From: Natronomonas moolapensis 8.8.11
GTDB taxonomy: Archaea; Halobacteriota; Halobacteria; Halobacteriales; Haloarculaceae
Direction of reading: 5' to 3'
Assembly (NCBI RefSeq): GCF_000591055.1
Contig: NC_020388.1
Coordinates: 372,001 to 436,000, forward strand
DNA: 64,000 nucleotides
Made by a program: the position numbers and the translations under genes. A model generated the notes under the pieces. That model did not search any database, was not told where the DNA came from, and saw only the letters and a list, made by a program, of their open reading frames with translations. Shown here in pieces: positions 56,476 through 59,946 of the stretch. Numbering within the stretch: the first letter of the stretch is position 1; every line of letters starts with the position of its first letter.

Positions 56476-57172
56476 GGTAGTGTTTAGATAAGCTGATTCC
56501 ATGCGAAGGCGAACGCTTGTAACCAATTTTCGGCGGTGCTTGGTTCGACGTGGCTAAACGTATTTGAAAATTGGTTTGTCCGTCGTTTTACTTCGCGAAA
56601 GACACGTTCGACGGCATTCCGATTCCCATGTGTGACGTGTTGGAATCGGAGCCCGTGTCGATGGCAGGCCGCGTGTAACCACGGTGCACCGTCGACGAGA
56701 AAGATCGCGTCGTCAACCTGATGTTTCTCACGCAGTTCTGAGAGAAACATCGAGGATACCGCGTTTGTTCTCGTCGGATAGAGCCGAACATGAAGCAGTC
56801 GGTTCGTGTCGGGATCGACAGCAGCGTACAGCCAATACTGCTCAGAGTTGAGCTGAATCACGGTCTCATCGACCGCAACGTGATTCGGATCGGCACCATC
56901 GGTCGGCTGTAGATCGGCCTTCTGAACCCACCGATGGACGGTGGTTCGATGGCGATCGACACCCAACCTCTCAAGAATCGAAACGGTATCCGAAAGTGAT
57001 AAGCCAGCCAAATGAAGTCGGATACCGAGCTTCATCGCCGGCTCGGGTGTCGCCTCTCGCTCCAGAAAATCTAATTCGATACAACCGCTATCGCCGCTGA
57101 GGCGGTCAAAGCTGAGCATAGAGCACTCAATCTTTTGACCGCCTCACCCTTCGACCTTATCTCAACACCGCC
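56476..57172 (-). mobile_element. IS6-family insertion sequence with 8-bp target duplication
   Basis: A complete 697-base element. Its ends are 19-base imperfect inverted repeats (15 of 19 positions match), GGTAGTGTTTAGATAAGCT on the left and GGCGGTGTTGAGATAAGGT as the reverse complement of the right. The flanks carry the direct repeat CGGGGAGC at 56468-56475 and 57173-57180, the 8-base duplication typical of IS6/IS240. The intact duplication shows a fairly recent insertion. Confidence 0.92.
56484..57119 (-). CDS. IS6-family transposase
   Basis: A 211-residue DDE transposase: an N-terminal HTH (LAGLSLSDTVSILERLGVDRHRTTVHRWVQKA), first Asp in HVAVDETVIQLNSEQYWLYAAVDPDTNRLLHVRLYPTRT, second in IFLVDGAPWLHAA, and Glu in RNAVERVFREVKRRT. 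The three catalytic residues and the ends look intact, so the element may be active. Only 7-8 bases separate the stop from the left terminal repeat. Confidence 0.93.
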   Translation of the reverse strand: MLSFDRLSGDSGCIELDFLEREATPEPAMKLGIRLHLAGLSLSDTVSILERLGVDRHRTTVHRWVQKADLQPTDGADPNHVAVDETVIQLNSEQYWLYAAVDPDTNRLLHVRLYPTRTNAVSSMFLSELREKHQVDDAIFLVDGAPWLHAACHRHGLRFQHVTHGNRNAVERVFREVKRRTNQFSNTFSHVEPSTAENWLQAFAFAWNQLI

Positions 57173-57563: not shown

Positions 57564-58049
57564 TCAGTCGTCGCCGGGCTCGGGCACCGACAGCGTCGTC
57601 GCGTCGCCGGGCTCGAAGCGCCCGTAGTGGACGACCTCCTCGACCGGACGCCGCCCCTTGCGCTCGTTTTCGACGTCGCTTGCGCCCTCTGCGGGGTAGC
57701 CGAGCGTAACGAGCATGACCGGCTCGTACCGGCCGGGGATCTCGAACGCCTCGGCGAGCGCCTCGGGATCGAACCCCTCCATCGGACAGCTCGCGACGCC
57801 GTGGTCCCAGGCGGCGTACATCAGCGTCATCGCCGCCAGCGCGGTCGAGCGGGTCGTCCAGACCCGACGTTCGGACTCGGGCAGCCCGCTCATTTCCGCG
57901 ACGTTCTCGAGGAGGGTATCGCGGACCTCCTCGCTCGGGAGGTACTCCTTGGCCAGCCAGTCGTCGAAGACCGCCTCGGCGTGTGCCATCGGGTCGGTGT
58001 GGCCCAACACGACGACCGCGGTGTCGGCCTCGGTGACGTGCGCCTGGTC
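57564..58049 (-). pseudogene. Nitroreductase-like gene, C-terminal part (split by IS605-type element)
   Basis: This 162-codon segment (DQAHVTEADTAVVVLGHTDPMAHAEAVFDDWLAKEYLP... TRSTALAAMTLMYAAWDHGVASCPMEGFDPEALAEAFEI...) is the C-terminal three quarters of an FMN-dependent nitroreductase. It continues the N-terminal part at 59755-59946 in the same reading frame once the element 58050-59754 is removed. Nitroreductases reduce nitro groups or quinones with NAD(P)H. The gene is inactivated here. Confidence 0.92.
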
Positions 58050-58105
58050 ATGACATCCTCCCCGCCGTGAACGGCGGGGTTTCCTCCGTGGGAGTCTCAG
58101 CCGGT

Positions 58106-59443
58106 CTAAGATCCCCCGGAGGCAACATTCCCGTCACGGTGGACGGTACTCGGGTCTGTGCGCTGTTCTTTGGGACGGTGAGAGTGTGGTGACTCCGACC
58201 ATTCGTGGTCGTCCCACTCGAACCGCACGGGCCGTGCCATCGGCCTGACTGCCTTCTCTGTGTGCCGCTCTAGGAACGTTTCTGAGGCTGTCAGGTCGGC
58301 GTGCCCCTCGAACCCACACGGACAGGTGAGTGTGTCTTGGTGCCGTGTCGTTCGGTCTGTCGAACCACATTGCGGGCACTCTTGACTGGTCCATGCTTCC
58401 GACCGGACTTCCACCGAGATACCGTATTCCTCGGCGGTACATGCCAGTCGCTCGGTGAATTGCTTGAACGCCCAGAAGTTGTGCGTCTTGGCATTGGTTT
58501 TGACTGACCAGTGGGTTTCCAACACGTCGGTCAGGCCACCGATATACACCGTGTCCACGCCTTCGGAATGTAGTCGTTCCAGCAGGTCACGACATAGTGC
58601 TTCTTGAGCATGGTCGCGGCGACGGGTTCGCTTCCGATACAGGCGTTCGATACGCTCGCTACTGTATCGTCCTTCTTCGAGCTTCGACTGTAATCGGGCG
58701 ATTTCTCGTGTCGTCTCGCGGAATCGCTGGAACAACTCGCGGCCTTCGTACAGGTATTGCTCGCCGGTTGTGGTGGTACAGGCGACAAGACTGTTCGCAC
58801 CAATATCCAGAGCGGCCTTCTCTGAGGCCAGTGGAGTGTCCCGTGTCTCGTCAGAAACAGTCACGGGTTGCGAGGCTCTGAAGGTGTTATCAGTCTCGTC
58901 GTACCACAGGTCCAACCGGCCCTGTTTCTCGTAGTCGGGCCAATTCGGGTCGCCAGCGATTTCAAGCCGGAGACGCCCGGTGTGGTCGTATCGGTCTTTC
59001 AAATCGCTCCCGACCAGTATCTCAAGCCGGGACCGCTCGCCCCATTCGACGGTGTACGATGTGTTGCGAATGACGGTCTTGAGAATACGTCCATCGTCCT
59101 CGTTGCCACGGAAGCCCGGTGGTTCCGGGTGTTCCGTGACTGACGTATTCGACTCGTCGTGGTACTTGTTCTTCGTATCGAAGAACCCGCGCCACGCTTC
59201 GCTGTTTTTGCGTATCACCTGTTGGGCGGTAGACGCGCCGAGAACACCTTTGTACTGGCCTTCGAGACGGCCAGTATCGGCGTCCCACACGTCGCCCTCG
59301 AAGCCGCCCTCGTCGTTGTACCGCATGAGGCGCTGGTAGTTGACTTCGTTCCAGAGCGCGGCGGAAGCGTCCAACAGGTCGCGTAGCAGTTGCTTTCCGG
59401 TGTCGGAAAGCGGTCGCACGGCGAACGTGTTGGTTCGCTTCAT
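58106..59443 (-). CDS. tnpB: TnpB-family protein with an altered RuvC motif
   Basis: A 445-residue TnpB/IS1341-type OrfB protein. TnpB proteins are compact RNA-guided nucleases that use a guide RNA from the element's right end. RuvC motif I is [13 protein letters not shown] with Asp213; motif III is GHADLTAS with Asp383; the zinc ribbon is [11 protein letters not shown]...CPCGFEGH. At the expected motif II position ([13 protein letters not shown]) Gly302 stands where canonical members have Glu. The start is the ATG at 59443, before [20 protein letters not shown], and an extended Arg-rich upstream frame is rejected. The C-terminal tail after residue ~400 is longer than usual. Confidence 0.93.
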
Positions 59444-59490
59444 ACCACAATCGTTTTCACGTCGCAGTGTCAAATAAGTCTTGTGTAACA

Positions 59491-59634
59491 ATGCGACCTG
59501 CAATAGATATTTCGTATGGGCTACACGGACGGGTGAAAGACTACGCCGAAGCAAACGATTTGTCGCTCGATGAAGCGTATATCGAAGTGTTGGAAACGGG
59601 ACTCGAAACGTTGGAGACTCAAGACCAGCAGTAA
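59491..59634 (+). CDS. Ribbon-helix-helix-like small protein inside the tnpB element
   Basis: A 47-residue protein divergent from tnpB, with 47 bases between the starts. It reads [39 protein letters not shown], compatible with a short beta strand followed by two helices, as in Arc/MetJ-type DNA-binding antitoxin folds. It lies between tnpB and the left-end hairpin, so it moves with the element. It could repress tnpB or the element, which is inference from position. Confidence 0.7.
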
Positions 59635-59754
59635 TGCGGCAGTTTCTCACGGGAGCTTACACGATTCACGCCCGCCCTGTTCAGTCCTCGGTTCCGACAG
59701 AACGTCGGAACACTCGTCCCTCACGGGAAGGGCGGGACTCTCTCGCTGTTACAG

Positions 59755-59946
59755 GTAGGCGACCTCCCGCAGCGCCGCCTTCCCGTCGTCCTCGCGCAAC
59801 ACGAGGAACTCCCAGGGCTGGAGGTTGTAGCCGGAGGGCGCGAGCGTCGCCGCCTCGAAGATCGACTCGAGGGTGTCCGCCTCGATCGCCTCGTCGTTGT
59901 ATTGGTGTACCGACCGCCGCGTCCGCAGCAGTTCGTCGAACTCCAT
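59755..59946 (-). pseudogene. Nitroreductase-like gene, N-terminal part
   Basis: A 64-codon segment from the ATG at 59946: MEFDELLRTRRSVHQYNDEAIEADTLESIFEAATLAPSGYNLQPWEFLVL, the FMN-contacting RRS(V)x(Q/Y) N-terminus of nitroreductases. It ends at the tnpB element boundary (TAC codon at 59757-59755); read through, the element supplies a stop four codons later. See the C-terminal part at 57564-58049. Confidence 0.92.

What the first reader, a model, noticed from the sequence alone, without database searches (positions are those of the whole stretch)
58106..59634. TnpB with Gly at the second RuvC position, plus a divergent RHH-like partner in the same element
Seen: motif I Asp213 and motif III Asp383 are present, but the residue aligned with the canonical motif II Glu is Gly302 ([13 protein letters not shown]). 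The same element carries a divergent 47-residue ribbon-helix-helix-like gene, no tnpA, and paired end hairpins. Known: TnpB needs the Asp-Glu-Asp set to cut, and nuclease-dead TnpB-like proteins acting as RNA-guided repressors exist. Inference: this protein may be an RNA-guided binder, or a nearby Glu (the one after DVL) may substitute, and the small protein may regulate it.
Basis: partly seen in the sequence, partly recalled or inferred. Interest (0 to 1): 0.75.

Follow-up and report, generated by a model that had tools for sequence, protein, structure and literature searches.

The report
Haloarchaeal TnpB element with divergent repressor-like gene
A small jumping element in a salt-loving archaeon carries an RNA-guided DNA-cutting protein whose key active-site residue has moved rather than been lost, next to a tiny conserved gene that probably switches it down, an arrangement repeated across many haloarchaea.

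Summary
TnpB (58106-59443, minus) has Asp213, Gly302 and Asp383, and a divergent 47-residue gene (59491-59634, plus) lies in the same tnpA-less element. I mapped the element to 58050-59754, inserted after CTAC in a nitroreductase gene.

The "dead TnpB" reading is not supported. Gly302 is fixed in 109 of 109 clade members, and so is Glu349, six residues before the zinc ribbon: the "Ealt" position of Fanzors and rearranged TnpBs. Of 91 aligned haloarchaeal TnpB rows, 68 have the canonical Glu and no Glu349, 20 have Gly plus Glu349, one lacks both and two are truncated. The suggested Glu309 is not conserved. The guide-RNA right end shows compensatory changes. This is most likely an active nuclease of a known class.

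The small gene is the interesting part. It is under purifying selection, and 69 of 70 close relatives have tnpB sequence nearby, divergently transcribed. An unrelated ribbon-helix-helix-like family fills the same slot in sister elements, and a third precedes canonical tnpBs. Cas12k transposons show the same layout. I infer an element-encoded repressor of tnpB; I found no report of this pairing in the papers available.

The parts
58050..59754 (-). Whole IS200/IS605-type element (tnpB-only, no tnpA), 1705 bp, left end at 59754, right end at 58050
   Evidence: Intact homologue L190 reads GCTTAC|GATCAGG where the window reads CCTAC|element|GACCAGG; about 130 relatives share a right end stopping at GGAGGATGTCA[T/A], and most readable left ends are preceded by CTAY
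59755..59758 (-). Target tetranucleotide CTAC, the presumed TAM, next to the left end
   Evidence: CTAC or CTAT precedes most left ends that could be read in related copies; its role as TAM is inferred
58106..59443 (-). tnpB, 445 aa; Asp213, Gly302 (canonical Glu lost), Glu349 (alternative Glu), Asp383, zinc ribbon C356/C359/C374/C376
   Evidence: (NCBIfam guided_TnpB 162 bits, cut-off 100)
59491..59634 (+). 47-aa ribbon-helix-helix-like gene (RHH-A), divergent from tnpB
   Evidence: (median dN/dS 0.19)
59444..59490 (.). 47-bp divergent promoter region; AAGACT box and a second GAC nine bases on (about 59482-59469); candidate operator and promoter
   Evidence: AGACT/AGTCT boxes 0.96 per sequence in RHH-A members against 0.18 shuffled and 0.00 in members without RHH-A
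58050..58168 (-). Right end and presumed omega-RNA 3' scaffold with covarying terminal hairpin; guide would start at 58049 going down
   Evidence: six of the eight terminal-hairpin pairs have 11-15 sequences with both sides changed; weak Rfam HgcC match
59650..59754 (-). Left end with subterminal palindromes
   Evidence: Sequence; same start in related copies
59755..59946 (-). 5' part of the interrupted nitroreductase gene
57564..58049 (-). 3' part of the interrupted nitroreductase gene

Best explanation
A tnpB-only IS200/IS605-type element. TnpB is a catalytically competent RNA-guided nuclease with a relocated RuvC-II glutamate (Ealt class), triad Asp213-Glu349-Asp383, guided by an omega-RNA made from the right end and the flanking host DNA, and cutting CTAC-flanked copies of the empty site so that the element is kept or copied back. 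TnpA would have to act in trans. The 47-residue protein is an RHH dimer that binds the short intergenic region and represses tnpB, and probably its own gene. Shown here: gene layout, boundaries, residue exchange, conservation, covarying RNA end. Inferred: cleavage, TAM role, DNA binding, repression, trans mobilisation.
For: D213, G302, E349 and D383 are invariant in 109 clade members while residue 309 is Glu in only 55. Canonical and alternative Glu exclude each other in 91 aligned haloarchaeal rows (68 DE[PAST]D, 20 DGED, 1 DGPD, 2 truncated; Fisher p 5e-19, rows not independent). E349, six residues, then C356 is the Ealt position (PMC10711439). Fanzor structures put the catalytic Glu in the loop between beta5 and the zinc domain, and SpuFz1 uses D383/E541/D606 (PMC11423790); in the model E349 follows strand 343-348. 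One TnpB of a RuvC-II-rearranged clade cuts dsDNA (PMC10278001). Right-end RNA covaries. RHH-A: 69 of 70 loci have tnpB sequence in the flank, median dN/dS 0.19, structural second look rich in RHH proteins. A second, unrelated family fills the same slot in 16 of 80 sister elements and in the window genome's own paralogue. Boxes between the two genes are specific to RHH-A members. Cas12k elements carry small RHH genes in the same position, or a proven MerR-type repressor, CvkR (PMC9938897).
Against: No activity, RNA or DNA-binding data. AlphaFold mean pLDDT is 65 for TnpB, and the RHH ribbon did not form in the monomer model. RHH-A matches RHH family models only weakly. 30 of 80 sister elements have neither RHH family, so it is dispensable. 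The AGAC boxes may be basal promoter elements rather than an operator. Activity of a haloarchaeal Ealt TnpB has not been shown in any paper I read.
Confidence: 0.65

Rival explanations
1. One reading: nuclease-dead, TldR-like RNA-guided binder, with the small gene as co-regulator.
For: Canonical Glu is Gly302.
Against: Glu349 is invariant at the known alternative catalytic position; exchange is reciprocal; the element keeps transposon ends and disrupts a gene, unlike domesticated repressors.
Confidence: 0.06
2. The RHH protein is a transposition accessory that binds the element's left end for a TnpA acting in trans, as RHH relaxosome proteins (TraM and the like) assist HUH relaxases.
For: Weak TraM and transfer-regulator ArtA matches; gene lies next to the left end; Y1 TnpAs are present elsewhere in the genome.
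Against: Many copies without an RHH gene still have intact ends and CTAY flanks; the conserved boxes lie between the two start codons, not at the left end; RHH-C precedes tnpB in the same direction, close to its start.
Confidence: 0.15
3. RHH genes are hitchhikers or captured antitoxin-like genes with no functional link to TnpB.
For: Related RHH domains occur in larger haloarchaeal proteins away from tnpB; RHH-B is beside tnpB in only 10 of 20 loci.
Against: RHH-A 69 of 70 beside tnpB; fixed divergent geometry with mostly 39-50 bp spacers; purifying selection; three RHH families at the tnpB start.
Confidence: 0.12

Closest known systems
Ealt, D-Phi-G TnpBs (PMC10711439) and RuvC-II-rearranged TnpB clades RII-r3/r5 (PMC10278001)
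   Same: Canonical RuvC-II Glu lost, Glu six residues before the first zinc Cys, hydrophobic residue after the RuvC-I Asp (DIG)
   Different: Haloarchaeal; tnpB-only with a divergent RHH gene; activity untested; which RII-r clade it falls in was not tested
Fanzor and pro-Fanzor
   Same: Relocated glutamate
   Different: DIG instead of DPG at RuvC-I; IS200/IS605-type element in an archaeon
Type V-K CAST with CvkR, Arc_1 or Arc_2 (PMC9938897)
   Same: Small DNA-binding gene, RHH in Arc_1/Arc_2, just upstream of and divergent from a Cas12/TnpB-family effector; different regulator families in the same slot
   Different: There Cas12k in Tn7-like elements; here TnpB in a minimal IS element; CvkR repression is proven there, RHH repression is inferred here; homology of the RHH proteins not tested
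TldR (nuclease-dead TnpB repressors)
   Same: Canonical RuvC-II Glu missing
   Different: A replacement Glu is invariant here and the transposon ends are kept
Haloarchaeal IS1341-type elements with sotRNA/omega-RNA (RF02656, RF02657; PMC8303175, PMC12558985)
   Same: tnpB-only elements in haloarchaea with a structured RNA at the 3' end of tnpB
   Different: No sot0042 or sot2652 match here; no RHH partner described in the passages read

Membership tests
TnpB (IS200/IS605 RNA-guided endonuclease) | Sequence family above curated cut-off | tested here: met
   NCBIfam guided_TnpB 162.1 bits (cut-off 100), Pfam OrfB_IS605 101.8 and Cas12f1-like_TNB 52.8
TnpB (IS200/IS605 RNA-guided endonuclease) | Three acidic RuvC residues and zinc ribbon | tested here: met
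   D213, E349 (relocated), D383; C356/C359/C374/C376; 109 of 109 invariant
TnpB (IS200/IS605 RNA-guided endonuclease) | Structured RNA at the right end of the element | tested here: met
   Conserved, covarying hairpin ending at the element boundary; transcription not tested
TnpB (IS200/IS605 RNA-guided endonuclease) | RNA-guided DNA cleavage | not testable with these tools
   Needs biochemistry
Ealt TnpB | No Glu at canonical RuvC-II site | tested here: met
   Gly302
Ealt TnpB | Glu six residues before the first CxxC | tested here: met
   E349-AWTSQE-C356, invariant
Fanzor / pro-Fanzor | DPG at RuvC-I together with Ealt | tested here: not met
   DIG at 213-215
TldR (nuclease-dead TnpB) | RuvC acidic residue lost without replacement | tested here: not met
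   E349 is present here and in 20 of the 21 full-length Gly-type rows; the exception is L261
TldR (nuclease-dead TnpB) | Loss of transposon ends / domestication | tested here: not met
   Intact ends and target site in a disrupted gene
Ribbon-helix-helix repressor | Beta-alpha-alpha fold in about 45 aa | tested here: inconclusive
   Two helices 7-21 and 26-45 with extended N-terminus, no strand in the monomer; structural second look rich in RHH proteins at Z 3.5-5.4; family matches weak, E 0.005-0.16
Ribbon-helix-helix repressor | Dimer binds operator DNA | not testable with these tools
   Only indirect: boxes specific to RHH-A members
Type V-K CAST regulator (Arc_1/Arc_2) | Homology to Arc_1 or Arc_2 | not tested

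The most novel reading that the evidence does not exclude
Haloarchaeal TnpB elements carry an exchangeable repressor module (RHH gene plus its operator) that forms a homing switch: TnpB is silenced in cells already holding the element and released on entry into a cell without the repressor, cutting the empty allele and driving homing, much like zygotic induction. Several RHH families were recruited independently to this job.
Probability: 0.25. Interest if true: 0.72.

Novelty: new variant of a known kind. Interest (0 to 1): 0.52.

Why it matters
How TnpB, the ancestor of Cas12, is kept from harming its host is little known. A minimal element with its own candidate repressor, in a group with genetic model species, makes that question testable and would extend the regulator logic of Cas12k transposons down to TnpB. 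The residue exchange also warns against calling haloarchaeal TnpBs nuclease-dead because the canonical Glu is missing.

Tried and rejected
Nuclease-dead TnpB: rejected because of the invariant Glu349 and the reciprocal exchange. Glu309 as replacement: Glu in only 55 of 109. Small protein peculiar to this copy: rejected, it recurs in many haloarchaeal genera. RHH-A and RHH-B as one family: profile comparison finds no similarity, though such short families can be too short to show it. RHH-A outside haloarchaea: one weak match (E 2.8e-5) in 247 genomes of the phylum. Viral copies of the TnpB: one locus. Coordinates of the model were not available, so active-site distances could not be measured. 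The PNAS TnpB/Cas12 classification is not held, so the exact rearranged clade was not assigned. A first regex screen for TnpBs failed and was replaced. End comparison with the genome's tnpA elements gave nothing clear. Paper searches for TnpB with ribbon-helix-helix or CopG found no report of the pairing; subscription papers and preprints are largely missing from that library. The AGAC control uses related sequences, so the shuffles overstate significance; the contrast with the two sister groups is the better control. Foldseek hits for the RHH model all have E above 0.7 and count only as a pattern.

Full report
Observation. tnpB runs 59443 to 58106 on the minus strand, 445 aa, a clear TnpB. 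Asp213, Gly302 and Asp383 are as described. A 47-aa ORF at 59491-59634 on the plus strand faces away from tnpB across 47 bp.

Element. The intact nitroreductase homologue L190 reads ...GTCGCTTAC GATCAGG...; the window reads ...GTCGCCTAC, then CTGTAACAG...GGAGGATGTCAT, then GACCAGG.... The element is therefore 58050-59754 with no target duplication, after CTAC. In related copies the right end stops at GGAGGATGTCA[T/A] and is followed by unrelated sequence, and CTAC or CTAT precedes most left ends that the script could read. There is no tnpA inside; the genome has four Y1 TnpAs and 21 matches to the TnpB zinc domain.

Active site. In A1 (25 sequences) and then in 109 clade members D213, G302, E349 and D383 are invariant; residue 309 is E in 55, D in 38, other in 16. 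Among 91 aligned rows (89 loci plus the query and one extra ORF; L001/P0001 and L002/L003 are duplicates) the residues at 213/302/349/383 are DE[PAST]D in 68, DGED in 20, DGPD in one, and two are truncated. So Gly at the canonical site goes with Glu at 349. E349 plus six residues plus C356 is the published Ealt position, and DIG fits the D-Phi-G Ealt clade, not the DPG Fanzor clade (PMC10711439). Fanzor structures place this Glu in the loop between the fifth strand and the zinc domain (PMC11423790); in the AlphaFold model E349 follows strand 343-348, D213 lies near the end of strand 206-214 and D383 near the start of helix 382-394 (pLDDT 65). Foldseek matches the model to AsCas12f, ISDra2 TnpB and Fanzor2. 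One RuvC-II-rearranged TnpB is known to cut dsDNA (PMC10278001). I conclude that the active site is rearranged, not dead.

Guide RNA. The last 118 nt of 36 elements align; the terminal hairpin has eight pairs, six with 11-15 sequences changed on both sides while pairing is kept. Rfam HgcC matches weakly (E 0.0018, below its cut-off). Expression was not tested.

Small gene. P0002 was found in 106 of 293 genomes of the order at E 0.01, a figure that includes distant RHH families. Of 70 loci fetched from its closer matches (about 52% identity or more), 69 have TnpB sequence in the flank, and the pairs read are divergent. From the TnpB side, of 80 loci fetched independently 34 carry RHH-A, 16 carry a different 45-aa RHH-like family (RHH-B) in the same slot, and 30 carry neither. 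The window genome's own closest paralogue (56% identity overall) carries RHH-B. RHH-B is beside tnpB in 10 of 20 loci. A third family, RHH-C, precedes canonical-Glu tnpBs in the same direction, running into the start of the tnpB open frame. RHH-A has median dN/dS 0.19 over 984 usable pairs. On a FastTree tree of 110 TnpBs the three states need 18 changes, with 6-7 forced by well-supported branches for RHH-A and for none. This suggests gain, loss or exchange of the regulator module; I did not test recombination directly.

Operator candidates. Spacers are mostly 39-50 bp, with a minor class near 267 bp. AGACT/AGTCT boxes occur 0.96 times per RHH-A spacer against 0.18 in dinucleotide shuffles, and not at all in the other two groups. 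RHH-B spacers hold a palindrome (ATAGATATTTATATCTAT and variants), and elements without RHH hold a shared TTTCACTTTCAC stretch (by eye).

Precedent. In cyanobacterial V-K CASTs small RHH genes (Arc_1, Arc_2) or MerR-type CvkR sit upstream of cas12k in reverse orientation, and CvkR is a proven repressor (PMC9938897). That makes repression the likeliest role here. Searches for TnpB with RHH or CopG returned no such pairing; the PLSDB gene table names the covered RHH-A genes hypothetical or does not list them.

Verdict. A relocated-Glu TnpB of a known class, plus a conserved divergent RHH partner not described in the papers I could search. New variant of a known kind. My confidence is about 0.9 for the relocated active site and about 0.7 for repression of tnpB by the small protein; 0.65 covers both together.

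Noticed in passing
L261 (G017:C3:147200-150800), 540-aa ORF: Only TnpB of the 91 aligned rows with Gly at the canonical site and Pro at the alternative site (AFGKL, NPEYTSQRC): a genuine candidate nuclease-dead TnpB.
   Followed up: partly
Window-genome loci L004-L008: A second group of relocated-Glu TnpBs (IGKL, SERDTSKTC), five closely similar copies in the same genome, with no RHH gene seen.
   Followed up: partly
L046, L102, L104, L107: A 40-45 aa RHH-like gene runs into the start of canonical-Glu tnpBs in the same direction.
   Followed up: partly
L088-L094: RHH-A-like domain as N-terminus of about 350-400 aa haloarchaeal proteins away from tnpB.
   Followed up: no
L034, L049, L056, L127, L132, L137, L150, L158, L174: A roughly 45-nt palindromic insertion sits in the loop of the right-end hairpin, inside the presumed omega-RNA.
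   Followed up: no
L112-L162, members without an RHH gene: Shared TTTCACTTTCAC...GGCTGAC stretch just upstream of tnpB.
   Followed up: no
58038-58135: Weak Rfam HgcC match at the right end (E 0.0018); HgcC may itself be an omega-RNA-like family.
   Followed up: no
56484-57119: Transposase-like ORF (211 aa) about 0.9 kb from the element, recognised by eye only.
   Followed up: no
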